A stretch of 64,000 nucleotides of DNA from Sulfitobacter marinus (GTDB lineage Bacteria; Pseudomonadota; Alphaproteobacteria; Rhodobacterales; Rhodobacteraceae), in NCBI RefSeq assembly GCF_900116285.1, contig NZ_FPAJ01000001.1, forward strand, positions 124,001 through 188,000. The letters run 5' to 3'. The stretch's first letter is position 1. Each line of letters begins with the position of its first letter. The notes under the pieces are model-generated. The model saw only the letters and a list, made by a program, of their open reading frames with translations. It had not been told where the DNA came from and did not search any database. Below are positions 30,135 to 45,361 of the stretch, one piece after another. A program made the position numbers and the translations under genes.

Positions 30135-30153
30135 AAGTGGCAGCCCGTAGGGG
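30135..30153. repeat. attL: 19-bp copy of the tRNA-Glu 3' end
   Basis: AAGTGGCAGCCCGTAGGGG is identical to 45343-45361. This copy is a remnant without the rest of the tRNA and marks the left junction. Confidence 0.9.
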
Positions 30154-30195
30154 CCTCCCAAAAGTGCCCAAAGTTCCAATGAAATATAGGCGTAG

Positions 30196-30205
30196 GTGTC
30201 CCACG
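30196..30205 (+). repeat. GTGTCCCACG end motif, left copy 1
   Basis: A 10-bp motif 43 bp inside attL, identical to copies at 30251, 45272 and 45292. It may be an arm-type site for the integrase or its excisionase. Confidence 0.6.
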
Positions 30206-30250
30206 ATCTGGCCGACTGGGCGGAATGGAAATCAATGGTTTATCAGGTGG

Positions 30251-30260
30251 GTGTCCCACG
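30251..30260 (+). repeat. GTGTCCCACG end motif, left copy 2
   Basis: Second left copy in direct orientation, 55 bp from the first, which is about five helical turns. Confidence 0.6.
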
Positions 30261-30399
30261 CTGTTCCAAGGGAAAAACCACAAACTCCGCAAGGCTCTCT
30301 TGCGTTTGGCAGAATATTTTTATTGCTGAAGTTGGAGTTTCTTTTGAGATTATCCCGGATATTTGGTTTCAGTCTCACCTTTGACCGGCAGTGCGCGAG

Positions 30400-33300
30400 C
30401 TATTCTGGTTTCTCTTTTGCTTTTCTAAAAGTATGAATTTGGATGTCTTTCTCCGAGAATGTGGGCTTCCAAGATGAGATGATTTGACGTTTTTCCAGCC
30501 ACTCTGCCAGAGATCGGTGGTCTGCCGTGTTTTCGATCTTTGGTGACTTTCCAAAATTAGCAATTTCAGAGTATGGTTCAGGCAATCCCTCAAGAATACT
30601 TCGAACTTGCTCGACGTTCAGCGCTTCTTGGCTTTTGTTCAGCAGAGATACCTGAACCGACGCAGGGCTGGAGTTGACAATTACTGACCGAAGGAAGTCA
30701 AATCCGAACCCATCTGTCTCGAAGCTTGTTCGATCCAAAATGGGGCCAACAACTGATGCTCGAGTGCCATCCGCGGTGATTGACACGGGGTCCATATCTT
30801 TAACGATAGTTCTCTTTTGGTCGTCAGAAATCTCTGAACTCAGAAGTCCTGCTCTGAAGTTATCGTCGATTTCGAAGTCACTTGACGCGCTCAGGAATAC
30901 ATCGATATTTTGCGCAACAAATTGTAATTTGAGATCAAGTTGGTCCCCCAGAAAAATAAAGTTCTGAACGGAGAACAAGATTTTTTTCTCTTCGATCAAG
31001 ATCTTCAACTTATCATGACTCAAGTCGGTCGGGAAATTTTTGAATTGCTTGGAAAGTTTTGAGATATAGGACCTATAGGTATCATCGTCAAAATTCCCAT
31101 TGTTTAGCAAAAACTCGCGAATTTGGAGTGCTTCTTTGCTATCTGGGATGTCTATGGCAAGAAGCAATTTTCTGATGTCATCGTCCTGCAAGTAATTGGT
31201 CAAATGTTCAGAACTAAAGCTTTCGCTGTTTAAGAACCTAAGGCAATTATCCCATGAGGGATCTATACGTTTTTTCTCAAAAGCATACGGGTGAAAATAG
31301 TGGGGAATCTCTGCAAGTGAGGACAGAATTGCCGTTTGTCTCTCCCAGTATTCTTCCAAGTATTCGGTTGCGACCTCATCGTGCTGCAGGGCGGCCAATA
31401 TCGCAGACTCGTCTTCGCTTGTGTTGCTTTCAAGCTTGAGAAGCACACGCCGGACATACCGAATGAAATCTGCCTCAACGCGGGTTTTCAGAGTTGTGTT
31501 ATTGGACGCCAGAATTGTGGTGTAGTGGCTCTTCTCCAGCAAGCTGATCTCGATAGTGCTATGCATGCTCTCGAATATGAACTGAATGTTCGGAATGTTG
31601 ACCTGATACAGACCACCATCCATTATAAACTCAATTTCCTTTGGAAAATCGGCAAGGCTTGGTAGATTAAATACTTCTATGTTCAATTGACTTAGTCTCG
31701 ACAGCTCAATTTCAACGCCTTCGCTGAGCACTTCTCGGGTGCTCGTGGAGAAAACCGCAGATACAGGCCCTTCCGCGTATGGTGCCTCTGTCAGCATCTG
31801 TTCGGGAGCGTAGGCAACCAATCTGGAAATATGCGAAACGTTCTGTTCGCTTTCGGCAGCGATGGCTGGAAACTCGGACCATTGGGAGGCAAGGGACGCA
31901 ACAAAAGCCTGAACATTTCGCCCCCTTTCATAATAGCTATTGAAGAACTGACGGCAGTCATCAAAATTTGTAGAAATGTAAGCCAGTGTAGAAGATATCT
32001 GCTCAGCATACTTCGCTTGATTATCAAAGAGGCAATCAACGATATGGCAATTCAAGACATAGCTTTGCCTAAAGTCGGCCTCCCGCATCGCGACAATCAC
32101 TTCGGCTGGGTTGTCAATCTGGACGTCAGGATCGGGCGTGTTGAAGCTTCGAATTTGGATTAGGAATTTGTTGTCATAAGGAGACAAACGGCCTTTGTGA
32201 AACAATGAAGTGTATTGGTAGTAGGTATCGTCGAGATGTCCCTCAAACACCAAAAATTTCATCAGTTCCTTGTTGTCTCCCAGATCCTTGAAGCAGGCTT
32301 CGGCTAAGGTGGAGTTTGCACGGATAACCTCGGCAAACTTCCGAATACGCAAAACTGAGATGTCCGACTTCAAATCTCGAACTGTCTGCCCAGATTTTGC
32401 TACGTACTTAGCCGATTTTTTCTCAATTTCCGCCTTCCGTTCAACGAAAGTTTTACTCTCATCAACCTCCTTTTCAATGTCTGGAAGACGGCTCTGTTGC
32501 CAACCGCCATTTGGATTCTGCGAAGTTACGATTTTGTCTGATGCCATTATCTGTTCGAGGTCCTCGCGGCTGGCGAGCTGACCAACGACAAATTCATTAT
32601 TGCTAACGCGTATGTGACCGTGGCCAGGTGGCAATTTTTCAATCACGGCCATCGCATATATCTTTTGCAATTCTCCTAAATCCTTAGGTAACTGCTTGTT
32701 TGCTTCACCGATCTCGGCCTCTATTTCGGATATTTGACCCTTGATGTCAGTTTCAGTGATTTCAATGAATTCCTCATATCGTTGAAGTAACGAAGCGAGA
32801 GCACCTTTTTGTTGATGAAGAGCTTCGAAGTCGCTTGGCAACACGTTCTTGTAGATTAACAAAGCCAAAAGTTTATTTGCGTTGAGAACGCCCTCATCGT
32901 CGCGCTCTAAATTATCAACATAGATGGCATATTCGTTGAAAATATTGTGAATTAGCCTTAGGTCGTTCAGATAGCGCGACACTTCCCTCAAAAACTGCGG
33001 GTCGAGACGTTCCACGAGCGACAGTCGTTTCCCTTGCTCCAAAATCTTATCAATCGAGTTCGAGTGATTGATGATTGGAACGATTGGAACAATGAATTCA
33101 AAGAATTTAGTTCGGTCCGTATTGTCAAACATGTCGTCTCGAAGAGCATACAAGAACCGAACATGGCGTTTCACACCCTTGTTTGAATTTATCAAGCCAT
33201 TGATTTCGCGGAGAGTTACAAAGATTTCTGGATTGTCGAAGCGATCCAAGTCTTCAATAATAACCAGATCGTAGGAAGTTGACTGGAAAAAGTAAATGAT

Positions 33301-34029
33301 TTCATCGAGGTGGCGACTGAGGATTGATTCTTCACCAGCGTTTTCTGGAGCGATTTCAATATCTTTCAGAGAGATGCCCTTCAGAGATAATCCGAAGCTC
33401 TGGAGATAAATTCGATGCAATATCAGCCAAAGAAACAAGAAGCCAAAAGCGAAGACGTTGAGATTAACCCAATTCGACCAGTCAAGTGGTTGAAAGAATT
33501 CGCCAGATGCGATCTCGGTTTTGTGTTGCAGTAGATACCATACGGACATGCAGCCGAATATGATCAATAGCGAAACAGCTGATGCCCACCACTTTGGTGA
33601 TTGAATGCGTTTGAAGCGTGAAAGAGGCAAACTGTTGGCGTCAGCACCGTACAGCATTTGCTGAAGAATGCTTATTTCAATTTCTTGATTATTGACGTTG
33701 GATGTTCGGTCATCGGACAATGTAGAAAAGTTACTGCTGTCCGAATCTGAAACAAAAGATGCCAGCGATATCTGCAGATAAGGTCGGCTGTATCTCCTGA
33801 GAAACGATTTGATCACACTACTTTTTCCCGAGCCGTACGGGCCGGTTAGCGCAATGTTGAATACGGCGGCATTGTTGGTCGCGAAATTGAGTGCCTCGAA
33901 GTAGGCTCCTTTTTCGTCGGCCTGGCTTGTAGGGGCAAGATCAACGAACTTACCACTCTGCGCGTTTACTTCTGTTGTTATAGAAAAAAAGGGCAACAAG
34001 GCCCGTTGAAGCTTTTGAATAATTTTCAC
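30400..34029 (-). CDS. KAP/YobI-like membrane-anchored P-loop NTPase (candidate defence protein)
   Basis: A 1209-residue protein. Walker A is GPYGSGKS at 63-70 and Walker B is LVIIEDLDRF at 255-264. Between them sit two hydrophobic segments (about 148-167 and 190-209), the hallmark of KAP-type NTPases, in which the ATPase head is tethered to the inner membrane. The remaining 900 residues are mainly helical with a coiled-coil stretch near 440-460 and no recognised enzyme domain. KAP and YobI-like NTPases occur in phage-exclusion and conflict loci, so a defence role is plausible but not shown. The start is a GTG at 34029. The coding sequence is AT-rich compared with the host, in keeping with recent acquisition. 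No partner gene adjoins it. Confidence 0.85.
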   Translation of the reverse strand: MKIIQKLQRALLPFFSITTEVNAQSGKFVDLAPTSQADEKGAYFEALNFATNNAAVFNIALTGPYGSGKSSVIKSFLRRYSRPYLQISLASFVSDSDSSNFSTLSDDRTSNVNNQEIEISILQQMLYGADANSLPLSRFKRIQSPKWWASAVSLLIIFGCMSVWYLLQHKTEIASGEFFQPLDWSNWVNLNVFAFGFLFLWLILHRIYLQSFGLSLKGISLKDIEIAPENAGEESILSRHLDEIIYFFQSTSYDLVIIEDLDRFDNPEIFVTLREINGLINSNKGVKRHVRFLYALRDDMFDNTDRTKFFEFIVPIVPIINHSNSIDKILEQGKRLSLVERLDPQFLREVSRYLNDLRLIHNIFNEYAIYVDNLERDDEGVLNANKLLALLIYKNVLPSDFEALHQQKGALASLLQRYEEFIEITETDIKGQISEIEAEIGEANKQLPKDLGELQKIYAMAVIEKLPPGHGHIRVSNNEFVVGQLASREDLEQIMASDKIVTSQNPNGGWQQSRLPDIEKEVDESKTFVERKAEIEKKSAKYVAKSGQTVRDLKSDISVLRIRKFAEVIRANSTLAEACFKDLGDNKELMKFLVFEGHLDDTYYQYTSLFHKGRLSPYDNKFLIQIRSFNTPDPDVQIDNPAEVIVAMREADFRQSYVLNCHIVDCLFDNQAKYAEQISSTLAYISTNFDDCRQFFNSYYERGRNVQAFVASLASQWSEFPAIAAESEQNVSHISRLVAYAPEQMLTEAPYAEGPVSAVFSTSTREVLSEGVEIELSRLSQLNIEVFNLPSLADFPKEIEFIMDGGLYQVNIPNIQFIFESMHSTIEISLLEKSHYTTILASNNTTLKTRVEADFIRYVRRVLLKLESNTSEDESAILAALQHDEVATEYLEEYWERQTAILSSLAEIPHYFHPYAFEKKRIDPSWDNCLRFLNSESFSSEHLTNYLQDDDIRKLLLAIDIPDSKEALQIREFLLNNGNFDDDTYRSYISKLSKQFKNFPTDLSHDKLKILIEEKKILFSVQNFIFLGDQLDLKLQFVAQNIDVFLSASSDFEIDDNFRAGLLSSEISDDQKRTIVKDMDPVSITADGTRASVVGPILDRTSFETDGFGFDFLRSVIVNSSPASVQVSLLNKSQEALNVEQVRSILEGLPEPYSEIANFGKSPKIENTADHRSLAEWLEKRQIISSWKPTFSEKDIQIHTFRKAKEKPE

Positions 34030-34402
34030 TTTATCTACGTCCGGGTTCGGGTGTGGTTGCGATGTTTCTATCAGCTTTAGCGGGTGCGCAAAGACCCATT
34101 ACTAATAATTAGAACTCAACTGAGCTCCAACAGCTCTCTGCAGCACAATAAAATGCAGTTTATACGAATTTGGATCTCTACTTCCGTAAAGGTTCAAGTA
34201 TCTGTTTGTCGCTTGTCCAAGGACGGTGGATTGAACGTTGCGAACTCTCGCTTGCGGCCCAATATATCGGTGACATTGCCAGCGTAAACATGATGGCCAT
34301 AATATTCGAGGGTTGGCCCTTAATCAGCGCTGCGTTTGAAGATAGCTTCAGCAGTGTCCAGTGATCGAAATTTGCATAGTTGCCGCGACAGCTGGCGACC
34401 GA
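34030..34402. other. Gene-free stretch upstream of the KAP NTPase gene
   Basis: About 370 bp without a supported gene, probably the promoter region of the NTPase. No strong hairpin or repeat was seen. Confidence 0.35.
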
Positions 34403-34603
34403 TTAGGAAGGTAGCCCATAAGTTCCGCCTTCCCGCACGCTGAGGTTGATGCTTGCCTCAAGCACTGTGCCCTTTGGCGATTGATCGGCAGCAGTGCGGG
34501 CTAATTGGTCGCGTTCTAAAATTTTTCCTGCTTCAGCGTCTTCTTTGGTACCAAGGCTTATAATCTTGCTGCTAAATTCGCACAAATATCCATAGAGACT
34601 CAA
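34403..34603 (-). other. In-frame open extension after the TGA of the helical unknown gene
   Basis: Directly after the TGA at 34604-34606 the same frame continues for 66 codons to 34403, beginning with TTG. There is no ribosome binding site for separate translation. It may be a readthrough extension, the remnant of a longer protein cut by a nonsense mutation, or chance. Confidence 0.3.
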
Positions 34604-35575
34604 TCATGTCCAGATGTTGCTGGCGCTCGTTGTGAAGGCCTTCTTTGCATCGACGTCTGCGACGAATTCCAACCACAAGTTCTTGCCCAGCTTCCGACTT
34701 GCAAATGCACCGGCCATTACGAGAAACGCCTTTAGGACTGCATGCATGTCATCGATGTATCCAGAAAGAAGGGTCTCGGTACCAGGTCCGTATGCGAGAA
34801 ACAGCGCTTCCCTATAGTTCGCTTTGCCACGGTAACGGGCTGCCTGGTGAACAAAGCCTACAGGTTTCCGATCGAGCCACTGATCACGCAATGCTCGCGC
34901 TGGCTTTGATCGAAAGTTGTCTACTCCCAAATCCCTGAACGCACGGTTGCGCCTTAGATCCTCCTCCGTTTTCCATGCATACCATTTCGCCGACCCTGAT
35001 AGGTAACCGGCTGCTGCGCCTTGCGCGTCGTCTTTGGTGATTGGTTGCGTCTGGAGCTTTCCGCTGCTGGCGTTCCGTAGTGCGTCGATCTCTGTCTTGT
35101 AGGTCTTCCCCACGAGGCTACTAACCCTCCAACTAAATGGTGCCATGGCCAGACTTCGGCTTGCGATCTGTTCGTCCCACAGACGAGCCGTCCCCGCATG
35201 GTCCTCTTGAAACGACCCGGATTGAGCGGCTGTCATCGCGCTCGCTGCATTGGCGATGCCATAATACCAGGCCAGAACCCCGACCCGGGCATAGTCCGCG
35301 GCTGTCGTTCCGCCGCGAAACTGATCAAGCGCGGAAAGATGATGGAGTCCGAGGAAGAGCTGCTCGAGAACGGTGTTCTCCACCCGGGCATCCATGTTCC
35401 GCTTGCCTTCCTGCCTGTAATAGGAAATCGCCGCCGTGAAATCGATGCCCTCGTCCTCGGCTAATATTCGCAGCGCACGCATCCAGTTAACAGTCGCGGG
35501 TAGCGCGAATTGCGGGTCCGGTTTACCCTCTGGCTCGTTAATGGTTCCCTGCTTGATAATGCGGTTGTAAAGCAT
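34604..35575 (-). CDS. Unknown helical protein, HEPN-like in appearance
   Basis: A 323-residue protein that I do not recognise. The ATG at 35575 is used; a TTG at 35626 would add 17 residues. Most of the sequence is predicted helical by composition. The segment ARVGVLAWYYGIANAASAMT followed by a conserved-looking His (QEDHAG) resembles helical HEPN-like domains, but no catalytic RxxxxH is seen, so this is a weak guess. It diverges from the reverse transcriptase gene across a 700-bp region with a noncoding leader. It could be a partner of that gene or an independent cargo gene. Confidence 0.6.
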   Translation of the reverse strand: MLYNRIIKQGTINEPEGKPDPQFALPATVNWMRALRILAEDEGIDFTAAISYYRQEGKRNMDARVENTVLEQLFLGLHHLSALDQFRGGTTAADYARVGVLAWYYGIANAASAMTAAQSGSFQEDHAGTARLWDEQIASRSLAMAPFSWRVSSLVGKTYKTEIDALRNASSGKLQTQPITKDDAQGAAAGYLSGSAKWYAWKTEEDLRRNRAFRDLGVDNFRSKPARALRDQWLDRKPVGFVHQAARYRGKANYREALFLAYGPGTETLLSGYIDDMHAVLKAFLVMAGAFASRKLGKNLWLEFVADVDAKKAFTTSASNIWT

Positions 35576-36119
35576 GATGTCACACCAATAATTTAGATAA
35601 TGCAAAAAGTGATTACGAAAAGGCAAGCCGTATTTCTCTCATGTTGACCTTGGTTTACTGCGCTGCATCCGTCAACCAGAGCTCGAAGTAGTTTTGAGGC
35701 GGTGCAGCTTGATGACCTACATACAGGACGGATGTGATGGATTAGGCAAGTGACCGCCGGCAATCAAAATCGAAAGTTTCTCTCCAGCCAAGAATAAGGG
35801 TTCGATCATGCAGGTTGGTGTCGAAGCTGAACTTCGGTGAAGTTCTGATTGGATCAACACGAAGGGTGGGGGCATCAACTCCGAACGCAGTTGCAGGGAA
35901 GTGTCGCAGTACGGAATAGCGAATTTCCGCTTAGATAGCTTCAATTATTGCGGTCATGTAAGACTAAGGCTCTATTTCTGGAGGGACACATGAATTCATC
36001 CCCAATGTGAAATTGTTCTTTATAAGTCCAGCCCATTTACCTGAATATAATGGAAAACGGTTCAACATCTATTGAAGCGCAGTTCTGGGAGCACTATATT
36101 GTGATCGTCCATTGTTGCG
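35576..36119. other. Long noncoding region between divergent unknown gene and reverse transcriptase
   Basis: About 545 bp with no supported gene. It contains a 7-bp hairpin (35829-35835 with 35839-35845), a strong ribosome binding site in front of a six-codon ORF (GGAGGGACAC then ATG at 35990), and a TATAAT box at 36046-36051. Defence-associated reverse transcriptases and retrons often have a template RNA in this position, so a noncoding RNA is possible; no retron msr/msd structure could be recognised. Confidence 0.4.
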
Positions 36120-36299
36120 ATGGCGTCCGACGTGAAGCTGGCACTGTCCATGCGGATCGCGCGTCATGGTGGCAATACCGAGGTGGCCTTGGCTGCCAAC
36201 GTGTCTCTTGTCTGGGAATATTCAGGCGAGATGGATGAAGTACCCGTCAACGGTCGGAGATGCATGCACGGGGGTCCGAACCGGAGAACTTATGGGTGA
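36120..36299 (+). CDS. Possible small ORF overlapping the reverse transcriptase start
   Basis: A 59-codon frame from ATG 36120 to TGA 36297-36299, overlapping the reverse transcriptase ATG by 8 bp. The predicted peptide begins MASDVKLALSMRIARHGGNT and has ordinary protein composition. Coupling to the downstream gene would be possible. There is no clear ribosome binding site, so the call is tentative; the stretch may instead be part of an untranslated leader RNA. Confidence 0.3.
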   Translation: MASDVKLALSMRIARHGGNTEVALAANVSLVWEYSGEMDEVPVNGRRCMHGGPNRRTYG

Positions 36300-37629
36300 T
36301 CTTTTCAAGGCAGTTCGAGCTGAAAGCAATATGTTCGCCGCATGGCGTCATGTTAAAAGAAGTGCGCTGAGTTCCGCTAACATGGAGATCAAAGGCGCGG
36401 CGTCAGTTTTTGAGCACCAGCATCAGCGCTACATCAAGCGTTTCATTCGCCAGTTGCAGCAGGGGACGTTTGAATTCGATGCGGTACAAGGTGTGCTCGC
36501 CGATAAAAAAGAGCGTGAGAGAGCAAATAAGGATCCAAGGCCGATAGCAATCGCCACCCTTAAAAACCGTGTTGTACAGCGTGCTATCTTACAAATTTTA
36601 CAACCACGCAAACCCCGGGATGTCAAAGAGGTCGATGGTCGTTTCGAAACTACCGTGAATCCGGCTTTGGGTAAGATTAATGACGTAAACTCATCCGCTT
36701 ATGGCGTTGGGGGGCTGATCAAACCCTATGGAGGTGTTGGGCGTGGTATCGATGCAATCATGTCAGCCATGAATCACGGAGCGACGCTTTTTTACCGCTC
36801 TGACATCAAGGCGTTCTTCACTGACATTCCGGTGGCCCCGGTTATCGAGTTCGTCAGGAAAGAAACAGGCGATGACAAACTGGCAGACCTGTTTGCACTT
36901 GGCCTTGAAGTACACCTTGGCAACGAGGATGAGCTTCGTGGGTATGCGCACCTATTTCCTTCTAATGGGCACGGAGTAGCTCAAGGCTCCTCCCTGTCAG
37001 CTTTTGCTGGCAACGTGCTTCTTTATGATATGGATCATGAAATTAACGCGTTGGGCGTCACCGGAATTCGCTATATTGACGATATAATGATCGTTGCAGA
37101 TACTCAGGGGAAACTGGATGCGGCAGTCGCCTTAGCGCAGTTAAAGCTGAAAAACCTTGGTTTTACCCTCTATGAACCTATTAACGGGAGCGATAAGGCC
37201 GAGACTGGAAGGTGTTCAGACAGTTTCGGGTTCTTGGGATGCACTCTACATCCGAAAAAGTGTGTGCCGAGCGCCGCATCTGTGAAACGTATTTTAGCCG
37301 ACGCAGAGGACACGTTTTCTAAATCTCAAAACACCATCAAGCGCTTCAAGGAAAAGGGCGGTTCCTTTCATTCGCAGCAATCTCCAAGCTCTGTCCTACA
37401 CACACTCGGAAAAAAGCTATATGGTTGGCAAAAGTCTTTTGCGTTCTGTGACGACGTAACCATCTTCGAGCACGTTGACGAACGGATTGCGAAGCGCGTC
37501 GAAAAATACAATCAGATTGTGGCCCGCCATACGCGTGGGTTAAGCCTATCTCAAAAGGCGACGGTCTACGGCCTTCCATCTACAGTTGAAATGTTTTTCG
37601 CGTCCCGTCGGTATGATCCCAATTCTTGA
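36292..37629 (+). CDS. Reverse transcriptase, probably of a defence-associated (DRT/UG-type) group
   Basis: RNA-directed DNA polymerase of 445 residues. Visible motifs are RPIAIATLKNRVVQRAI (83-99), motif A with the catalytic Asp in FYRSDIKAFFTDIP (Asp171), motif B VAQGSSLSAF (229-238), motif C YIDD (261-264) and FGFLGCTLHPKK (312-323). No group II intron maturase or endonuclease domain follows, and the usual retron motif between RT2 and RT3 is not seen, so it most resembles the unknown/DRT lineages. The ATG at 36292 has GGAG 7 bases upstream. The active site is complete. Whether it needs the upstream noncoding region as template is unknown. Confidence 0.85.
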   Translation: MGDLFKAVRAESNMFAAWRHVKRSALSSANMEIKGAASVFEHQHQRYIKRFIRQLQQGTFEFDAVQGVLADKKERERANKDPRPIAIATLKNRVVQRAILQILQPRKPRDVKEVDGRFETTVNPALGKINDVNSSAYGVGGLIKPYGGVGRGIDAIMSAMNHGATLFYRSDIKAFFTDIPVAPVIEFVRKETGDDKLADLFALGLEVHLGNEDELRGYAHLFPSNGHGVAQGSSLSAFAGNVLLYDMDHEINALGVTGIRYIDDIMIVADTQGKLDAAVALAQLKLKNLGFTLYEPINGSDKAETGRCSDSFGFLGCTLHPKKCVPSAASVKRILADAEDTFSKSQNTIKRFKEKGGSFHSQQSPSSVLHTLGKKLYGWQKSFAFCDDVTIFEHVDERIAKRVEKYNQIVARHTRGLSLSQKATVYGLPSTVEMFFASRRYDPNS

Positions 37630-37911
37630 TTGCAGGCTATGGTACTGAGGCCGCGCTGTCCGACGGAGGCCAGACCTTCCGCCCGCACGTTGGGATCACT
37701 AAGCAGGGAGCGTTTGCCAATCGAATCCGTGGTCGTTCTGGTAAGCCCATCCGCTTGCGTGAATGGTCTGTCGTGCCGACGGACATGATCCATGATGTCG
37801 TTGTGAAGATCCAGGTTGGAGCGTGCATCTATTCGGATGCCAGCCTGATGAGGTGACACTCATCAGAAAGTGAAAGGCACGCGTCGATCGAAGCAAATCT
37901 GGAGGTCGTGG
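37630..37911. other. Gap after the reverse transcriptase
   Basis: About 280 bp. Overlapping short frames exist on both strands, none with a ribosome binding site or known similarity. It may be a 3' RNA region or a decayed gene. Confidence 0.35.
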
Positions 37912-38265
37912 TCAGCTCTTGGGAGCGTCTGAAGGTATGAACGGCAGGCTTTGTGTCTTTACCCCATCAAGCTTTTTCGATTTCTCCGTTCCGGCGAAGC
38001 ATTCATAATCGAGCACAGAAAGCCCCAAGAAATCTCGATCTCTTTGTGATCGAATCAGAGCGTGAATGCGCTCCAGACTCTGTTCTTGCTGCCGCTCGGA
38101 CAAGGTGTTTAGGCCAGCAAGGTATGCTGCGCCGTAAAGGATTTTTCGGCGGGTATCATCTCTACGTTCCTGCTTACTGGATTGTGCTTTTAGATCGCGC
38201 AGCTTTTGCCGTTCTCTGTCAATCTTCTTCTCGGCGGCTGCGATTTTTTGGTCGATGTTTACCAT
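37912..38265 (-). CDS. TraD/MobC-like mobilization accessory protein
   Basis: A basic helical protein of 117 residues. The start MVNIDQKIAAAEKKIDRERQ and the following KLRDLKAQSSKQERRDDTRR give a charged coiled coil, and KILYGAAYL after it matches the small TraD-type proteins found beside MOBQ relaxases. The ATG at 38265 follows GGAGAA. It diverges from the relaxase gene, with the origin of transfer between them. It probably helps relaxosome assembly at oriT. Confidence 0.7.
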   Translation of the reverse strand: MVNIDQKIAAAEKKIDRERQKLRDLKAQSSKQERRDDTRRKILYGAAYLAGLNTLSERQQEQSLERIHALIRSQRDRDFLGLSVLDYECFAGTEKSKKLDGVKTQSLPFIPSDAPKS

Positions 38266-38390
38266 TACGATTTCTCCGATTTTGGCATTGTTGAATTGGA
38301 CATAGGTCTTTGCCAGGAATTTCGCGCGGGAATTACAATTTTTGACGGCAGATGAGGTGGGTGCCGATAAACCCGAAGCCAAAAAAGGCG

Positions 38391-38423
38391 AAGGGCGCGG
38401 TTACGCAACTCCGGTGGAGTTGC
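38391..38423 (-). other. Origin of transfer (oriT) of RSF1010/R1162 type
   Basis: On the minus strand an inverted repeat GCAACTCC-ACC-GGAGTTGC (38423-38405) is followed by the core GTAACCGCGCCCTT (38404-38391). R1162/RSF1010-type oriT has the same arrangement, with a core of the form TAA-N2-GCGCCCT, and nicks within GCG/CCC. The predicted nick here is on the minus strand between 38396 and 38395. A G+C stem followed by seven T residues (38423-38447) lies beside it. The relaxase gene starts 64 bp away. Confidence 0.72.
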
Positions 38424-38486
38424 CGCGCGCCTGCCGCGGGCTTTTTTTCGGGAGCGGACTTCGGCTGCGGGCACCAAGTCCTCTTT

Positions 38487-39716
38487 ATGATACACAAAGC
38501 ATCACGTCTCGAGATTAAGATCCGCAACCGCAGCAACTGTACTTCGATTGTTGCTGCTGCCGCCTATTGTGCTGGCGAGCGCTACCGCTGCGACCGCACT
38601 GGGCGATTAAAGAACTATCAGTGCCGCCGCGATGTCGTCTCGGTCGAGTCTATCAAAATGCCGCATGATCCAGAGCGGATCTGGAATGCGGCAGATGCCG
38701 TTGAAAAACACCCGGGAGCACGGCTGGCACGGGAATTTGTGATATCGCTGCCCGTCGATCTACCGCTCGATGTTCAGCGGAAATTGGTCCGCGGATATTG
38801 CCTCTGGATGCATGAGACCCATGGTGTTTCCTCATTTGCGTCAATCCATCATCCGCTGTCGGACGGGGCGGACAAAGAGATATTATCTGATCTTAGGCCA
38901 CAGACCGAGGGAAGGAAGAAGCCAATCAAGGTGCGAAAAGACGAACGAGGGAACCCTCTGAACCAGCATGTTCATATTCTCTGCCCAACACGGCACTGGT
39001 GCGACGAAACAGGACAGTTCACAAAAAAACTGCGTGATCTCGATCATATCGTGAAGGGACCGAAGTTTGTCCAGTCTGTTCGAGATGAGTGGGAGCGCCG
39101 CGTCAATCGCTTGCTTATTAAACATGGCATCAATGAGAAAGTAGATTTGCGCAGTTACAAGAAAATGGCGGCGGCTGGCGATGCGCCTGAAGGTCTGATG
39201 GCGCAAAAGAAGATGGGACCTAAAAATGCCGCGCGTGGACGTCAGCGAGAGTTAGAGGTCGGTGAAGATAGTACTTACCTTGGAGTCGATCGAGCAGAAA
39301 CCCAAAAACATAATGCAAATTGCTGGGATAGCTGGTTGACGCTTCGGGCGCTTGAACGCGAAAAAGGCAGGTTGGAGAGAGCGAGAGAACACGCTAACCA
39401 GACGGAGGCCGCAAGGCGCATGGAGGCGTCAGAAGCGGAAGCAAAGATCGCGGCTACGAAAACCGAGACGGCGCGTGTCGCAGCGATTGAAGCAGCACCA
39501 CACCTTGACGCGCTCGATCCTTATGCAGCGGCAATGGCTTGGGCAAAAGGCGGTAGGGATGAAACGATTGATCCGGCTTCAGACCGGCGTATGAATCCGG
39601 AGACGGAAACAGCGGCTACTTCAGGGTCGGGGATTCCGCCGAACGTAGAAATCAACAAAAATGCTGCGAGTAGGTTTGCTCGTCAACGGCAGCGCCAGAG
39701 AACACGCGGCGCTTAG
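38487..39716 (+). CDS. MobA/MobL-family (MOBQ) relaxase
   Basis: Nicks oriT and stays bound to the 5' end during mobilization; 409 residues. The catalytic Tyr is Tyr27 in AAAAYCAGERY, matching the position of Tyr25 in RSF1010 MobA. The metal-binding His residues are His121 in SIHHP and His161/His163 in NQHVHILCPTR. The segment between these His clusters is longer than in RSF1010 MobA. The C-terminal half is Ala/Glu/Arg rich and helical, without a primase domain; the element's primase-like protein is encoded separately. The ATG at 38487 was chosen from the motif distance, as the ribosome binding site is weak. Confidence 0.88.
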   Translation: MIHKASRLEIKIRNRSNCTSIVAAAAYCAGERYRCDRTGRLKNYQCRRDVVSVESIKMPHDPERIWNAADAVEKHPGARLAREFVISLPVDLPLDVQRKLVRGYCLWMHETHGVSSFASIHHPLSDGADKEILSDLRPQTEGRKKPIKVRKDERGNPLNQHVHILCPTRHWCDETGQFTKKLRDLDHIVKGPKFVQSVRDEWERRVNRLLIKHGINEKVDLRSYKKMAAAGDAPEGLMAQKKMGPKNAARGRQRELEVGEDSTYLGVDRAETQKHNANCWDSWLTLRALEREKGRLERAREHANQTEAARRMEASEAEAKIAATKTETARVAAIEAAPHLDALDPYAAAMAWAKGGRDETIDPASDRRMNPETETAATSGSGIPPNVEINKNAASRFARQRQRQRTRGA

Positions 39717-39788
39717 GAGTAAAGCTTAAAACCGAGCGGTGTCGACCGGCGTTCAGACCCGAAGAGTTGCGGTCGCCCGCCGAGACGA

Positions 39789-40244
39789 TCATGCTGCTGC
39801 GGATACAGTCTTGGAAGCGCAGTTCACTTTACTCGCTTTGCCCCATGGCTCACCCCATTGATTGAAAAGTGGGAAATTCTCTCGTCTATTCATGTGGTAG
39901 CGGCGGTAAGCATAAATTAGGTGAATTTCCTTCGGGATTGTTTCTTCGCCGTAATGGACCAGTTTGAGTTCGCGCTCACTGGCCGCAACTGCCCAATCCT
40001 TCGCCCTCAACCTTTCATCGTCCAGAAGCTGGAGAAGAGGTTGAGCTTTTGAGATGGCTTCAAGTGTTGAATGATTTGACTTTGCGGTCTTGCGTATTTC
40101 GCGTTCCGCCTGACACAGACGGAAAAGAAAAAGTTCTTGTAGCGCGACGTGCTCTTGAGCGCTTGTGTGGTTTCCGACTAATCTGACCAATCCGCCAAAT
40201 GCGCGGTTGTCGAGATCATCGTCGGAAATATTGGGCGAGTTCAC
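39789..40244 (-). CDS. Unknown protein, second gene of a two-gene unit
   Basis: A 151-residue soluble protein not recognised. It contains a helical stretch rich in Leu and Glu (ALQELFLFRLCQAEREIRKT) and a Tyr/Arg-rich segment (LIYAYRRYHMNRRENFP). It overlaps the upstream gene by 29 bp, so the two are probably cotranslated. Function unknown. Confidence 0.5.
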   Translation of the reverse strand: MNSPNISDDDLDNRAFGGLVRLVGNHTSAQEHVALQELFLFRLCQAEREIRKTAKSNHSTLEAISKAQPLLQLLDDERLRAKDWAVAASERELKLVHYGEETIPKEIHLIYAYRRYHMNRRENFPLFNQWGEPWGKASKVNCASKTVSAAA

Positions 40245-40572
40245 GTCCCCAGCTTATGCGCCGCTTAATCGCCATGTCTAACCAAGCGGAAACCACCTGA
40301 TGTTCCACAGTATATTTCGCGTGCGAGAAAGTCTCATTGTCGAAAGTCACCTGAAAAGAAGCTTTTGAAATGCGTTCAGTTGAGAGCGAAAACTTAATAA
40401 ATCGATTGGTTTTATCGAATTGAAACGTACCCCAGACGTCAAGCGTTAGCTCCTTCAACGAAGATCGAAATTTTACTGGAAGCGCATTGTCGATTTCACA
40501 CTTTATCTTCACAGTCTCGATGTCAATTTGTCCAGCAAGAATAGCAGGTAGGGCGATAGGGAGGGCGAGCAT
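40216..40572 (-). CDS. Unknown protein, first gene of a two-gene unit
   Basis: A 118-residue protein with a hydrophobic N-terminus (MLALPIALPAILAGQ) that could be a signal or anchor, followed by a beta-rich middle (LKELTLDVWGTFQFDKTNRF). Not recognised. It diverges from the replication gene, so the 156-bp gap holds two promoters. Confidence 0.5.
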   Translation of the reverse strand: MLALPIALPAILAGQIDIETVKIKCEIDNALPVKFRSSLKELTLDVWGTFQFDKTNRFIKFSLSTERISKASFQVTFDNETFSHAKYTVEHQVVSAWLDMAIKRRISWGRELAQYFRR

Positions 40573-40691
40573 TCGATTATCCTTTGTCTAAATACGGGCG
40601 AGTTATTCTGCCTGTGGTTAGGAAGTGGAGCTACCTCGGGTGATACGGAAACGGTCGAGTGCATTTGACCTCTAAAGAATTACGTCGCGAA

Positions 40692-40739
40692 ATTTTGAGA
40701 GGGTTCATTTCGGACGTAAGTCCTCAAAATGGAACCCTC
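40692..40739 (+). promoter_or_regulatory. Overlapping inverted repeats (possible pseudoknot) over the replication gene start
   Basis: Two 8-bp perfect stems interlock: 40692-40699 with 40723-40730, and 40699-40706 with 40732-40739. The first encloses a GGAC/GTCC hairpin and buries the ATG at 40729-40731. The stems cross, as in an H-type pseudoknot, or exclude each other. Both hide the start codon region, suggesting control of translation. Confidence 0.45.
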
Positions 40740-42378
40740 GCAACAACTTCATTTCTCCGATCATCCCCTACCGGCCCTCACCAAGATGCGGGCCGAGGAT
40801 TATCTACGGCTGCTTCACCCAGAAGGTGCGCACGGCCAAGTAACGTTGATGCGGCTGGACGACGATGTGAAATGCGCCCGCACATATGATTGTGCATCTC
40901 TGCCTTTTACAGCCTCTGTTTGGCTCGACGTCTCGGCCTATGTCACGCTGCACCGGTTTCATGGCCCTCGCAGCTACGGCCGTCTGGCGGCACTCAATGT
41001 ACTGGCCTTGGACCTTGATTATAGAACCATGCCTTGCTGGCGAGATGCCGCGCTCAGCAAAGTCGTCGAGGCATTCTCGGCTGTCGTACAATCCTTGGGG
41101 CTGCCGATGCCGTCAACGCTGACGGATACCGGGCGCGGTTTCGCGGCTCTGTGGTTTATTGACGAGCTGCATCCGGCAGCCTTGGAAAGATGGCAGGCGG
41201 CACAGGCCTGTCTTATAGATTTGTTCCAGAAGTTTGGAGCGGATCGCGCCTGTTGCGACCCTGCGAGAGTTTTTCGCATACCTGAAACTATCAATAATAA
41301 GAATGGTCGCGAGGTCGCCGTGCTTGGAGGCACGCTGCGGCGCTACGGTTTTGATGCGCTCGCTGATCGAATTTATATTGCGGCGGGTCGGCCAACGCGG
41401 GCTGCACTTGCTGACATGACCTCCGTACAGAAAGCGAACAAGCAGAAGGGTTCTACGGGACCGCGTGGTCTCGCCCCAGCTACACGCTTCCGTCATGTGC
41501 GCGGCGATTTATTGACGCTCGTGCACTACTGGAAAGATCAGGTACCCGAGGGTCTCCGCAACGTGTGGCTACATGTCTATGCTACGTGCCTCACGCATGA
41601 ACACGATGTGAAAGACCTTGAGTCTGAAGTGGAGCGGGTCGCAGCCCAGTATTGCATCGGGCTGTCGCGGACGGAGGTGGCGTCTGTGATCCGAGCCGCC
41701 ATTCGGCGCCTCAAGCGCGACCAGCAAAAGTATAACTATTCTGGTGCGCGAATTGCGGAGATGCTCGGAGTCTCCGACTGCCTCGCGAAGAAGCTCGATT
41801 TGCGGCAAGTATTTTCCTCCGTGGAAAGAAGTAAACGGCGGGTTGAGAGCGAAGCCGCCCGTCGCCGTGCTAAGGGCATGAAGATGCGCAAGGACTACCT
41901 GGCGGCAAACAACATCTCGACCGAAAAGCCATGGCTGGTACACGGTTATTCTCGGTCGACATGGTATCGAAAGGGATGCCCACCCGCGTCGGTGACAGAA
42001 AGAAAAACCGCTGAAATTAAAGACGTGGAACCCTGCAGAAAAAGTGAGACAAGTCTACTACTACGACAGGGGGGCTTGCCACGCGGAACGCCATTGCTAA
42101 AGGCTGCAGTGGGGCACCAGCCGCTCAAACACCCCCCCGACAGCAACCCGAAACACTCCATGGAGCATATACCTTCGATCAGGCAGCGCGCCGACAGCGC
42201 CCGCTTACGCCCTAATCTCCTGCCAATCTCGATGTTGTCTGCCAAGGTCATGGCTACATCGCCACCAGAGCGTAGTCCTGCTGGAAGCTGCACGAGATAT
42301 GTATCGGAATTGCGCGCTGAGACTGAGGATCCGACGATTGGCAGACCTTTTGCGAAGTTGCATCCAGCAAGACAGTGA
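40729..42378 (+). CDS. RepB-primase-like replication protein
   Basis: A 549-residue protein with an N-terminal archaeo-eukaryotic primase-like domain. Supporting blocks are LNVLALDLDYR (metal-binding acidic pair), LTDTGRGFAALWFIDE and DPARVFRIPETINNKNG, the arrangement of the RepB_primase family found in plasmid and ICE replication proteins. A helical middle (about 240-360) and a basic, probably disordered tail follow. Its job is most likely priming of the transferred or excised strand. No separate helicase gene is visible. The start codon lies within interlocking inverted repeats; an ATG at 40786 is an alternative. Confidence 0.65.
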   Translation: MEPSQQLHFSDHPLPALTKMRAEDYLRLLHPEGAHGQVTLMRLDDDVKCARTYDCASLPFTASVWLDVSAYVTLHRFHGPRSYGRLAALNVLALDLDYRTMPCWRDAALSKVVEAFSAVVQSLGLPMPSTLTDTGRGFAALWFIDELHPAALERWQAAQACLIDLFQKFGADRACCDPARVFRIPETINNKNGREVAVLGGTLRRYGFDALADRIYIAAGRPTRAALADMTSVQKANKQKGSTGPRGLAPATRFRHVRGDLLTLVHYWKDQVPEGLRNVWLHVYATCLTHEHDVKDLESEVERVAAQYCIGLSRTEVASVIRAAIRRLKRDQQKYNYSGARIAEMLGVSDCLAKKLDLRQVFSSVERSKRRVESEAARRRAKGMKMRKDYLAANNISTEKPWLVHGYSRSTWYRKGCPPASVTERKTAEIKDVEPCRKSETSLLLRQGGLPRGTPLLKAAVGHQPLKHPPDSNPKHSMEHIPSIRQRADSARLRPNLLPISMLSAKVMATSPPERSPAGSCTRYVSELRAETEDPTIGRPFAKLHPARQ

Positions 42379-42629
42379 GATTTATCAGATGGCCTGACGC
42401 TACTCCCGAAGGTTCACTGCATCGACGTCACCAAAGTTCGGCAATATTTACTCCGAAGCGACGAAGTGCCCAGATTTTATCAGTAATTAGAACACTGGAG
42501 TAAAGAGGCTGCGGTTCATTTTGTCCGCGCTCTTCTGTGAGAGACCGCGGACAGAATGAACCCGCCACCAGCAGCGAATAGATGCTTGAAGCAAGGAGTT
42601 CCTCTTTGCACTGTTGGAGTACGACTAAT

Positions 42630-43088
42630 ATGAATATTGTCACCCCTTGGGCTCTCAAGCCGACAACGCCACATCAACACTCAAATTTTCCCATTCATGG
42701 GTTTGTTGAGAAATATCACAATGGACTTCACCATGCGGCATACTTGCTGGCCGGTGGCGAAGGAGCAAACCTCGTCGAAAATATTTCCGATGCTCTGGGC
42801 CGAGAAATGATGCCGTCCCGACGGACAATGGGCCTGCTCAGCAAGTTAAAGGACATCTTATTCCTGAAGCACGTTGATGAGCCATACCAACCGGAATCTG
42901 GCTATTTCGCGGCCATCGACCCCGCGGACCCAATGGTCGAGGAGATCTGCCTGCTCGCTGACGGCTTTGCCGAGGCATTGCGCATCTGTTCCGAGGCTTC
43001 CCCGCTGGGTAACTGTGCAAACAACGTCAACGGCGTTCATGGTTCCCATCATCACGCCGTTGCTCAAGAAATGGGAGATCTGCAATGA
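42630..43088 (+). CDS. Unknown protein, coupled to the next gene
   Basis: A 152-residue soluble protein not recognised, His-rich near the C-terminus (GVHGSHHHAVAQEMG). The ATG at 42630 follows GGAG at 10 bases. Its stop overlaps the start of the next gene as ATGA. Paired small genes in such elements may be toxin-antitoxin or regulatory units, but no motif supports a choice. Confidence 0.5.
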   Translation: MNIVTPWALKPTTPHQHSNFPIHGFVEKYHNGLHHAAYLLAGGEGANLVENISDALGREMMPSRRTMGLLSKLKDILFLKHVDEPYQPESGYFAAIDPADPMVEEICLLADGFAEALRICSEASPLGNCANNVNGVHGSHHHAVAQEMGDLQ

Positions 43089-43510
43089 GTGTAGAACTTT
43101 CCCACCGAGAATTTTTGTTGGCGTTGACTGCAGACGCGGTGATGCAAGCTCGCATTGCCCGCGACCAACTTTATGATGTTATCATTCCGTCGCTTCCTCC
43201 TCTGCGCCGAGCAATCGCTGAGGCAGTAAAGCGTCACCTCAACGCAGATGCTTTGCTCACGGAGCCATTCCTCCATGATCTGGAGATACTCATTGATTTC
43301 ATGAGAGTTGAAATCGAAAAAGATGTTCAGACGACGTGGATCGCGGATGAACACAACGTGCATGGTGGGCATCACCAGCGTCATTTCGATACGCGCACAC
43401 ATTCTCTGGCGGTCGCTGTCGGACATCTTATTGGGCTCTACGAGGCGGTCACCGAAGTAATCGATACGGTCCAGGCCGAGCGGTTGATGGACGACCTTCT
43501 TCAGGGATGA
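43085..43510 (+). CDS. Unknown protein, coupled to the previous gene
   Basis: A 141-residue helical protein not recognised. It starts at the ATGA overlap with the upstream gene and ends just before a perfect 11-bp terminator stem, so the two genes form one transcription unit. A His-rich patch (EHNVHGGHHQRHFDTRTH) is near the centre, similar in flavour to the His cluster of its partner; metal binding is possible. Confidence 0.5.
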   Translation: MSVELSHREFLLALTADAVMQARIARDQLYDVIIPSLPPLRRAIAEAVKRHLNADALLTEPFLHDLEILIDFMRVEIEKDVQTTWIADEHNVHGGHHQRHFDTRTHSLAVAVGHLIGLYEAVTEVIDTVQAERLMDDLLQG

Positions 43511-43516
43511 CGCAGG

Positions 43517-43545
43517 ACGGCGCTGAGCTTCAGCGCCGTCATCTT
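43517..43545 (+). terminator. Terminator of the coupled small gene pair
   Basis: Perfect 11-bp stem GACGGCGCTGA/TCAGCGCCGTC (43517-43527 with 43531-43541), a 3-nt loop and a weak T tract. Confidence 0.75.
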
Positions 43546-43930
43546 GAGGGCTGAGATGCCCAGAGGTTGCCTTGGCCAGCCACCAGCCAGCGCGTGCCGG
43601 CCTTTCACCCCAACTGCTGCTCACGGCCTGCACGCGTTTGATATGCAATCTGTCTCGACGAAGGCTTTTGTCGATGTTGATTACGCCGCGATAGGCCGAT
43701 CTCCAAAGGAACGCTCAAGATAATTCGCAAAAAGGGTGCAGAGGAAATCGTAGTTGATCAGCTGCGCTCTCAGTTTTGAGTTTTTGTCCATACAGTGACT
43801 CGATTCAAGTAACTGATTTATAATGATTAATTTGAAATATCTACCGGAATTCGAGAGATATCGAACCATAAACACAGATGTCCCCGAAATGCGAAAATCC
43901 GACGCACATCCTCGAAAATGAGGAAACACA
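43546..43930. other. Gene-free stretch before the integrase operon
   Basis: About 385 bp. An 82-codon frame on the minus strand (43681-43929) has no ribosome binding site or recognisable similarity and is not called. The region should hold the integrase promoter. Confidence 0.35.
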
Positions 43931-44134
43931 ATGCCAGCCGCACGCCCATCTCAAGCTTCTCTCTCAAATGCCATCAGTGCCGTGATTACCGCAGGGCTCA
44001 TACCCGGTGCTCTTCATGTTCACGGAGACGGTTCTTTCCGGATCGAAATATCTGTCTCAGATGCAATCGATACGAAAATTCGAAGTGAAGAGGCGTTTTC
44101 GGACGAGCCAGAAAGATTTGAGGACCTACGATGA
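43931..44134 (+). CDS. Small protein coupled to the integrase
   Basis: A 67-residue protein whose stop overlaps the integrase start (ATGA). The core SNAISAVITAGLIPGALHVH, followed by GDGSFRIEI, matches a type of small ORF I recall upstream of tyrosine integrases in alphaproteobacterial islands (AGL...DG...I pattern). It may regulate or assist the integrase, possibly as a directionality factor, but this is inferred from position only. Confidence 0.6.
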   Translation: MPAARPSQASLSNAISAVITAGLIPGALHVHGDGSFRIEISVSDAIDTKIRSEEAFSDEPERFEDLR

Positions 44135-45327
44135 GAGTTTGGACAGAATACCCGGGTCTTCTGGAGGAATTTACACCTGCGGGAAATCCCCGTTGGCGAG
44201 TTCGTGTAGAAGGCGATAAATCTCGGCGTATCACAATACCCGTGGGCCCGAGTAATCCAGCTTTTAAGGATCACTACGAGGCTGCGCGACTTGGAATTAA
44301 GCTGGAGGCTCAGATTCCCGCTAAGGTCGCACGTGGCACCTTTGATGAACTGTGTGAGCGTTTCAATGCAGCGATGGTAGACATGGTAATGGCTGGGGTT
44401 CTGAATGAAGACACAAGGACCGGTCGGCAGCGTGGACTTCGACAGGCAGCCGATGTGAAAATGCGCGGACGGCGCATGGGGGAGCTCAACGCGGACTTCC
44501 CCAAAAAAGCATTCGTTCACATCCTCGATTCTTTTGGTTCGCACACAGGTGCTGCGGAAACGTGTCTTAAAGCCATGAAGGCCGCTTACCGCTGGGGTGA
44601 ATCTCGTGGGTTTCCAGAGAAGTCGGAAGTTTTCGTAGTTTCAAGCCCACATAAGGGGCGTGGTGGCGCAATAGCGTGGACAGAAGAAGAAGAGAAAAAA
44701 TTCTTGGAAACACATGGAAGTGGCACCATGGCGCGGCGCTGGTTTTATTTGACCAAGAATATGGCAGGCCGCATCGGAGACACTTTCGATATTGGACCGG
44801 AGAGCATCAAGCTCAAGCAAGGACGTGCCTTTTTGGGTTGGCAGCCCAAAAAGAACGGCTCTAAGTATGTGGAGGTGCCTCTAATGAAAGAGCTTGCTGA
44901 GGAACTGGAACTCGGTGTGCATGAGGACGCTTTTTTGCTCACCGAATTCGGTCGTCCGTTCGCTTCGAAAAATTCATTGGGAAACAAGATTTCAAAGTGG
45001 GTTGTGCAAGCAGGATTCTACAAAAGTATTGAAGTGGTAGATAACAAGACAGGTAAAAAAAGGACTGAAAAGAGGGCCACGCGCTCTCAACACGGGGTTC
45101 GAAAAGCTACTGGACACGAGATGGCCCTATCGGGTGCGAATGTCTATGAGATTGCCGCTCGCCTGTCTCACTCGGACTTCAAATCGTCGGCACCCTATGT
45201 CCAGGGAGTTGATCGCGCCCGATTGGTCGAGTCTGGTTTCGACAGGGTTGAGAGAGCTCGCCAAGAGCGAAGTGTCCCACGCCACGAAAACCGTGGGACA
45301 CCTGAAGTATCAGATGCCAATGAATAA
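44131..45327 (+). CDS. Tyrosine site-specific integrase of the island
   Basis: Recombinase of 398 residues that inserts the element into tRNA-Glu. The catalytic residues are Arg214 in AGRIGD, His321 and Arg324 in QHGVRKATG, His347 in LSHSDF and the nucleophile Tyr356 in APYVQ. The N-terminal part carries the core-binding and probable arm-binding domains. Its stop is 15 bp from the right att repeat, and the last codons contain an inverted pair of the end motif. Complete, so excision should be possible. Confidence 0.93.
   Translation: MRVWTEYPGLLEEFTPAGNPRWRVRVEGDKSRRITIPVGPSNPAFKDHYEAARLGIKLEAQIPAKVARGTFDELCERFNAAMVDMVMAGVLNEDTRTGRQRGLRQAADVKMRGRRMGELNADFPKKAFVHILDSFGSHTGAAETCLKAMKAAYRWGESRGFPEKSEVFVVSSPHKGRGGAIAWTEEEEKKFLETHGSGTMARRWFYLTKNMAGRIGDTFDIGPESIKLKQGRAFLGWQPKKNGSKYVEVPLMKELAEELELGVHEDAFLLTEFGRPFASKNSLGNKISKWVVQAGFYKSIEVVDNKTGKKRTEKRATRSQHGVRKATGHEMALSGANVYEIAARLSHSDFKSSAPYVQGVDRARLVESGFDRVERARQERSVPRHENRGTPEVSDANE
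45272..45281 (+). repeat. GTGTCCCACG end motif, right copy 1
   Basis: Inside the 3' end of the integrase gene, 61 bp from the right att repeat. Confidence 0.6.
45292..45301 (-). repeat. GTGTCCCACG end motif, right copy 2 (inverted)
   Basis: Inverted relative to 45272-45281 with a 10-bp spacer, giving a palindromic site 41 bp from the right att repeat. Confidence 0.6.
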
Positions 45328-45342
45328 AGGCTTTTAGGAGGG

Positions 45343-45361
45343 AAGTGGCAGCCCGTAGGGG
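45343..45361. repeat. attR: 19-bp repeat in the tRNA-Glu 3' end
   Basis: Same sequence as 30135-30153. It overlaps the CCA end, acceptor stem and part of the T arm of the tRNA gene, the standard target of tRNA-specific integrases. Confidence 0.9.

What the first reader, a model, noticed from the sequence alone, without database searches (positions are those of the whole stretch)
30135..45361. 15-kb mobilizable defence-type island in tRNA-Glu
Exact 19-bp repeats mark both ends, the integrase is intact and the right copy lies in a complete tRNA-Glu. The cargo combines a membrane-bound KAP/YobI-like NTPase, a reverse transcriptase and several unknown proteins, with MOBQ mobilization functions and no conjugation apparatus. 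This composition is that of a mobilizable element carrying anti-phage genes.
Basis: partly seen in the sequence, partly recalled or inferred. Interest (0 to 1): 0.8.

Follow-up and report, generated by a model that had tools for sequence, protein, structure and literature searches.

The report
Mobilizable tRNA-Glu island with repair-type RT
A 15-kb piece of DNA that can probably move between marine bacteria with outside help sits in a tRNA gene and carries one likely anti-phage gene; its reverse transcriptase looks like a DNA-repair type rather than a known defence type, and relatives of that enzyme are preceded by a structured leader with two near-identical repeats.

Summary
The island is real. 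Its 19-bp repeats occur only at 30135 and 45343, the right one in the 3' end of tRNA-Glu beside an integrase gene. Relatives show empty, remnant and differently filled sites, so it is an integrative mobilizable element (MobA/MobL relaxase, conserved oriT-like region, no transfer apparatus found). Defence cargo is partly supported: the large NTPase matches Tmn, orf2 is a rare gene seen beside type III methylases elsewhere, and sibling islands hold type III restriction, an RT-Toprim gene and a TIR gene. The reverse transcriptase is not a recognised defence RT: sequence, YIDD motif and predicted fold put it with G2L4 RTs, reported to repair double-strand breaks. Following it outward gave the surprise: 19 of 25 scorable G2L4-type loci, one with an RT 87% identical to the solved enzyme, carry a structured, apparently non-coding leader with two 116-141-nt direct repeats, 95-100% identical within a locus. 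The window's assembly shows one repeat only. In Rhizobium, leader fragments are scattered; three end within one nucleotide of the same point, as if copied by the RT. I found no description of this leader in limited searches. All biochemistry is untested.

The parts
30135..30153 (.). left 19-bp direct repeat (attL)
   Evidence: exact copy of 45343-45361, no other copy in the window
30400..34029 (-). Tmn-like / YobI-type P-loop NTPase, 1209 aa
   Evidence: PF20693 414 bits (cut-off 27); PADLOC Tmn E 2.4e-79 over residues 24-645; alphaproteobacterial plasmid relatives 45-50% over 96-99%
34604..35572 (-). orf2, 322 aa, unknown; beside type III methylase genes in G158, L203 and L206
   Evidence: no Pfam, NCBIfam or PADLOC match
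36072..36100 (+). promoter-like P1, TTGAAG-17-TATATT
   Evidence: score matched or exceeded by about 1 in 300 background windows
36107..36238 (+). single copy of leader repeat R
   Evidence: match to R of L128-type leaders
36248..36257 (+). X' arm (CAACGGTCGG)
36292..37629 (+). G2L4-type reverse transcriptase, 445 aa (ORF open from 36166)
   Evidence: phmmer to 9d5x E 2.7e-45; YIDD; fold match Z 38
37912..38265 (-). mobC-like small protein (position and conservation only)
   Evidence: 37-47% identical proteins divergent to MobA in G037 and G079; no Pfam family at cut-off
38385..38441 (.). candidate oriT
   Evidence: conserved between mobC and mobA in G037 and G079, inverted repeat keeps pairing
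38487..39716 (+). MobA/MobL relaxase, MOBQ-type
   Evidence: PF03389 93.9 bits (cut-off 26.7); NCBIfam MobQ 118.7 bits (cut-off 200, not reached)
39789..40572 (-). orf7/orf6, one gene split by a frameshift
   Evidence: both halves match one 270-aa ORF in G079
40729..42378 (+). rep-like protein, 549 aa
   Evidence: weak RepB_primase match, 17.3 bits, below the cut-off of 24.3; relatives in the same genus
42582..43510 (+). orf9 and orf10, small unknown proteins
   Evidence: distant relatives in G017 and G079
43931..44134 (+). orf11, 67 aa, just before the integrase
   Evidence: conserved in G003, G021 and G081
44131..45327 (+). tyrosine-recombinase integrase, 398 aa
   Evidence: PF00589 E 0.00067, below the cut-off; relatives beside tRNA-Glu
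45343..45361 (.). right 19-bp direct repeat (attR)
45346..45420 (-). tRNA-Glu (ttc), target gene

Best explanation
An integrative mobilizable element. Its tyrosine recombinase inserts a circular form at the 3' end of tRNA-Glu, restoring the tRNA and leaving 19-bp direct repeats (inferred from anatomy and comparative sites). A MOBQ-type relaxase would nick the oriT-like region between mobC and mobA, and a co-resident conjugative element would supply the channel (inferred; no transfer genes found). The cargo is a Tmn-like NTPase (likely anti-phage or anti-plasmid, by homology), a rare gene seen in other defence contexts, and a G2L4-type reverse transcriptase. The RT most likely acts on DNA ends by strand annealing and microhomology-mediated repair, as reported for G2L4. 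In its relatives it is preceded by a structured RNA leader with two near-identical repeats, which I propose it copies, starting next to the X/X' stem; in the window's assembly the leader is P1-R-X' only.
For: Exact 19-bp repeats and tRNA-Glu; empty site G020, remnant G045; integrase relatives at tRNA-Glu with other content; relaxase and conserved oriT-like region; Tmn match; defence genes in sibling islands; RT identity; leader repeats, structure and scattered copies.
Against: orf7/orf6 is frameshifted and excision was not observed. Integrase and rep HMM scores are below curated cut-offs. RT identity to the solved G2L4 is only 32%, and its plug insertion is two residues shorter, lacking the residue aligned to R191. 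PADLOC's best RT model is UG17. The window has one repeat, not two.
Confidence: 0.8

Rival explanations
1. The RT is an anti-phage DRT-type enzyme (UG17/DRT10-like) and the island is a multi-system defence island.
For: PADLOC RT_UG17 is the best PADLOC model, 114 bits. Defence genes occupy sibling islands. Like DRT10, relatives have a structured RNA upstream with repeated segments.
Against: Full-length match and best fold are G2L4, Z 38 and 34; DRT9 chains reach 20.4 and DRT2 18.1. YIDD is the stated hallmark of G2L4 (PMC4244168, passages). No SLATT family among the proteins scanned, while DRT10 needs one (PMC12632851, parts read).
Confidence: 0.12
2. The leader repeats have nothing to do with reverse transcription: they are a recombination switch or cis-regulator of the RT gene, and the scattered Rhizobium fragments are chance DNA captures.
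For: Six of 25 loci lack a second repeat, as recombination between repeats would leave them. Two scattered copies end elsewhere. Only Rhizobium genomes and plasmids showed scattered copies.
Against: Conserved RNA structure and X/X' pairing that changes between clades while staying paired. Three fragments in two species end at or within one nucleotide of the start of X'.
Confidence: 0.5
3. The island is a decayed remnant, no longer able to move.
For: orf7/orf6 is frameshifted.
Against: Integrase, relaxase, rep, RT and NTPase ORFs are open and both repeats are perfect.
Confidence: 0.2

Closest known systems
Integrative mobilizable elements with a tRNA target and MOBQ-type relaxase
   Same: integrase at a tRNA 3' end, direct repeats, relaxase and oriT-like region, no transfer apparatus found, variable cargo
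   Different: nothing basic; transfer and excision not shown
Tmn (transmembrane NTPase) defence protein
   Same: PADLOC Tmn and YobI-type NTPase over the N-terminal half
   Different: the C-terminal half is not covered by the PADLOC match; no activity known for this protein
G2L4 reverse transcriptase (solved as 9d5x and 9d4s)
   Same: YIDD, full-length match, best fold match, most of the RT3a insertion
   Different: 32% identity; insertion two residues shorter; relatives, including one 87% identical to the solved enzyme, carry a repeat leader that I did not find described
DRT10 / UG17 with its A-B-A' ncRNA
   Same: a structured RNA encoded upstream in which a repeated segment brackets a spacer
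   Different: repeats of 116-141 nt instead of 4 nt, a G2L4-type RT, no SLATT protein, copying not shown

Membership tests
Integrative mobilizable element | integrase and direct repeats at a tRNA, with empty sites in relatives | tested here: met
Integrative mobilizable element | relaxase and oriT | tested here: met
   relaxase by HMM; oriT is a conserved candidate only
Integrative mobilizable element | no own transfer apparatus | tested here: met
   no conjugation family in the Pfam and NCBIfam scans of the island's main proteins
Integrative mobilizable element | excision and helper-dependent transfer | not testable with these tools
   needs PCR and mating
Tmn defence | match to the Tmn model | tested here: met
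   E 2.4e-79, residues 24-645 of 1209
Tmn defence | protection against phage or plasmid | not testable with these tools
   needs an assay
G2L4 RT | YIDD in RT5 | tested here: met
   hallmark per PMC4244168 passages
G2L4 RT | RT3a plug with the 9-residue insertion | tested here: inconclusive
   insertion present but two residues shorter
G2L4 RT | closest fold among solved RTs | tested here: met
   Z 38.0 and 34.0, next family 27.4
G2L4 RT | end-joining repair activity | not testable with these tools
   needs biochemistry
DRT10 / UG17 | adjacent SLATT protein | tested here: not met
   no SLATT family in the Pfam scan of ten island proteins, the RT's neighbours included
DRT10 / UG17 | fold closest to DRT enzymes | tested here: inconclusive
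   no DRT10 chain appears in the list; DRT9 and DRT2 chains rank below G2L4, DGR and group II RTs
Group II intron | curated cut-off of the intron RT model and an intron RNA | tested here: not met
   107.9 bits against 300; no Rfam group II intron at gathering threshold in the window

The most novel reading that the evidence does not exclude
G2L4-type reverse transcriptases are not stand-alone enzymes: they come with their own structured template RNA, in which two near-identical 116-141-nt direct repeats bracket a spacer, so that the RT, starting beside the X/X' stem, can jump from one repeat to the other and make tandem cDNA. Its cDNA is sometimes pasted into chromosomal breaks, leaving truncated retroposon-like copies in Rhizobium. 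Mobile elements such as this island carry the unit, here in single-repeat form.
Probability: 0.35. Interest if true: 0.88.

Novelty: new variant of a known kind. Interest (0 to 1): 0.6.

Why it matters
The island itself is an ordinary kind of mobilizable, defence-type element, useful as another case of a tRNA-Glu hotspot with exchanged defence cargo. The RT matters more. G2L4 RTs are described as domesticated enzymes made as free-standing proteins (PMC12337344, passages). A conserved, repeat-bracketed RNA leader in front of them, including beside a gene 87% identical to the solved enzyme, would give them a native template and turn the question of what G2L4 copies in the cell into a direct experiment.

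Tried and rejected
DRT10/UG17 identity of the RT: PADLOC's top model, set aside as above. A conserved protein partner of the RT: 22 loci compared; apart from the RT no neighbour family is shared by more than 4 loci, and the two shared by 4 are ORFs lying in the leader. That the leader repeat encodes a peptide: one frame is open through much of the repeat in many loci, but codon positions vary almost equally (0.25/0.23/0.30 in R1, 0.28/0.27/0.33 in the ORF's continuation, against 0.38/0.27/0.67 in the RT), so coding was judged unlikely. Promoter P1 before R1 scored well (background p 0.03 or less) in 8 of 15 two-repeat loci and not in the other 7; among single-repeat loci it scored well in the window and L129, not in C5, L142, L145 and L152. 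A promoter-like motif inside the spacer was seen by eye and is not claimed. RNAalifold's pairing of R1 with R2 is not trusted. X/X' complementarity failed in 2 of 16 loci, L132 and L138, and was not tested in L133, L154 and L155. Scattered leader copies: of 11 alphaproteobacterial RT genomes searched only G740 had them, the extra G741 hit being at a contig end; in 10 gamma/beta and other RT genomes or records searched with one Pseudomonas leader the rows fall at single places taken to be the RT loci; 4 of 148 Rhizobium genomes had any match, two of these being RT genomes; 2 of 72,556 plasmids. The short G857 hit could not be re-aligned. No clear target-site duplication. The orf2 structure model failed (pLDDT 39). 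The first genome-contig scan, with the RT alone, found nothing. The Sinorhizobium kinase/PP2C/VWA genes next to an orf2 relative did not match a PADLOC kinase system as a set. Sibling-island ORFs also include a metal-ATPase-like, an RTX-like and an oxidoreductase-like protein, so not all cargo there is defence; 7 of 10 proteins and 8 of 10 had no or only a marginal PADLOC match. G229's split RT and distant hits L156-L159 were not scored for leaders.

Full report
Observation. The window lies at C1:124001-188000 of an unnamed 3.57-Mb genome; the island matches nowhere else in it except over 69 bp on C5. The 19-bp repeat is exact and occurs only at 30135 and 45343 in the window. The right copy covers the last 16 bases of tRNA-Glu plus 3 flanking bases. 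The island is poorer in G+C than its surroundings.

Comparative sites. Of 45 further same-genus genomes searched with the joined flanks, 44 match the tRNA-Glu/recJ half. In G020 recJ, tRNA-Glu and the left-flank FAD gene lie together with no insert: an empty site. In G045 about 1.5 kb with an integrase remnant and one 342-aa ORF lies there. Integrase relatives occur in 33 of 145 genomes searched (E 0.001 or less, own included). Those of G037, G036, G003, G021, G081 and G111 sit right beside tRNA-Glu; that of G100 lies 2.7 kb away and that of G079 beside tRNA-Met. The 19-mer, or its last 16 bases in G081 and G111, is present at tRNA-Glu in those six; G111 has a second 16-mer 11.3 kb away. In G081 the DNA is 97% identical over window 43474-45340 and then unrelated, and its integrase frame is interrupted. 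So the site is a hotspot whose content changes.

Mobilization. A MobA/MobL relaxase stands divergent to a small protein. The DNA between them holds GGGCGCGGTTACGC followed by an inverted repeat; G037 keeps it almost unchanged, and G079 has different but still paired arms (by eye). The resemblance to MOBQ oriT nick regions is from memory. A core of mobC, mobA, the orf7/6 gene, rep and a small ORF recurs in G079, with no tRNA in the 12 kb fetched there. No conjugation family was found among the proteins scanned.

Cargo. The 1209-aa NTPase matches PF20693 (414 bits) and PADLOC Tmn (E 2.4e-79, N-terminal half). orf2 has no family. It was found in 3 of 295 family genomes and on 35 of 72,556 plasmids. 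In G158, L203 and L206 it lies beside a type III methylase gene (methylases confirmed), and in G158 beside a serine recombinase too; L204 looks alike by eye; the L206 copy is frame-broken. In a Sinorhizobium plasmid it lies near genes annotated VWA, PP2C and protein kinase, and in Sulfitobacter beside a Fic-annotated gene. Sibling islands carry a type III restriction pair between the two 16-mers (G111), an RT-Toprim gene 3.3 kb from tRNA-Glu (G003) and a TIR-effector match near the integrase (G036).

The reverse transcriptase. PADLOC ranks RT_UG17 first (114 bits), but phmmer against solved structures gives G2L4 RT at E 2.7e-45 over residues 2-403, the next molecule at 3e-6. The AlphaFold model (21-row alignment, pLDDT 90.8) matches G2L4 at Z 38.0 and 34.0, then DGR RT at 27.4 and group II RT at 25.1. 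The motif is YIDD, and the RT3a insertion is present but two residues shorter. G2L4 RTs are reported to repair double-strand breaks by microhomology (PMC12337344, passages read). A second copy (46-47% identical) stands on C5 of the same genome, about 10 kb from an integrase gene beside tRNA-Phe and next to a pentapeptide/ion-channel gene. The RT is rare: of 295 family genomes, 11 had a match at E 0.001 or less, but only the own genome and G229 were below 1e-10.

The leader. Compared were 19 loci from genome contigs, the plasmid-collection locus L127, the two own copies, two viral contigs and L152, L154 and L155. L134 and L140 had too little upstream DNA to score. Of the other 25, 19 have two direct repeats of 116-141 bp, 95-100% identical, starting 334-485 bp apart and ending 48-78 bp before the matched RT start (in L133 after joining two contig ends). 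The six without are the window, C5, L129, L142, L145 and L152. Six of 182 control windows had any direct repeat of 70 bp or more. The repeats differ between genomes while agreeing within one. Among nine alphaproteobacterial loci the spacer averages 77% pairwise identity (28 pairs) and R2 80%, the RT genes 71% (36 pairs each). L139, with perfect 141-bp repeats, has an RT 87% identical to the solved G2L4; L140-L143 and L145 are 58-60%. L127, with perfect 132-bp repeats, is from a record described as complete. L148 has a phage-integrase gene and L149 a Zot gene nearby.

Leader as RNA. Codon positions vary nearly evenly in the repeat and spacer, unlike in the RT. Two hairpins just before R2, tested together with X/X', give 10 pairs with changes on both sides, all in the hairpins; all five measures exceed all 500 shuffles and all slid controls. 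The hairpins were taken from the fold of the same alignment, which favours them. The bases after R1 (X) and after R2 (X') are complementary over 11-16 positions in 14 of 16 loci (shuffle p 0.012 or less), and the pairing sequence changes between alpha, beta and gamma clades while staying paired. Rfam has no match to the leader in five sources.

Scattered copies. In Rhizobium sp. 2MFCol3.1 three fragments about 99% identical to its own leader lie at unrelated loci, plus an older one at 88%. Two end at template positions 3114 and 3113, and a fragment on a Rhizobium johnstonii plasmid ends at 3114, where X' begins; their left ends differ. The third recent fragment shares its left end with the first, within a base, but ends about 20 nt earlier; a R. 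ruizarguesonis plasmid fragment is cut at both ends. I read this as cDNA started beside the X/X' stem and captured at breaks; DNA capture without an RT is not excluded.

The window's own leader is P1 (36072-36100), one repeat (36107-36238) and X'. No spacer or second copy was found in the assembly. This may be a true loss by recombination or a collapsed assembly.

Literature. Eight library papers hold G2L4 and 'reverse transcriptase'; three also hold 'noncoding RNA'. I read passages of PMC12337344 and PMC4244168 and searched PMC13015716 for ncRNA, noncoding and upstream, which do not occur in it; the other five I saw only as listings. No such leader is mentioned in what I saw. Of PMC12632851 I read parts 1-2 and two sections. 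The original G2L4 repair paper did not appear in these searches and was not read, so absence from print is not established.

Noticed in passing
own genome C5:391340-404958 (L085, L086): A second G2L4-type RT on C5, beside a pentapeptide/ion-channel gene and about 10 kb from an integrase gene at tRNA-Phe: two copies of a rare RT in one genome, both near a tRNA and an integrase.
   Followed up: partly
39789-40572: orf7 and orf6 correspond to one 270-aa ORF in G079 and to one ORF at a contig end in G037; frameshifted here, function unknown.
   Followed up: partly
L118, L203, L206 (orf2 relatives): orf2 stands divergent to a type III methylase gene in three loci (L204 looks alike by eye), as if part of or attached to that system.
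   Followed up: partly
L097 (G003), L100 (G111), L092 (G036): The tRNA-Glu site of relatives holds RT-Toprim, type III restriction and TIR genes beside relatives of this integrase.
   Followed up: partly
L088 (G081:C32) 1541-1946: A second tRNA-Glu of G081 has the 19-mer twice (in the tRNA and 280 bp away) next to DNA like the island's left end; unexplained.
   Followed up: no
L141 and L143, about -455 to -243 from the RT start: The Pseudomonas leaders hold a second, 103-bp-spaced tandem repeat inside the spacer.
   Followed up: no
L149 (viral contig): A G2L4-type RT with its two-repeat leader lies about 3 kb from a Zot gene, as in a filamentous prophage.
   Followed up: partly
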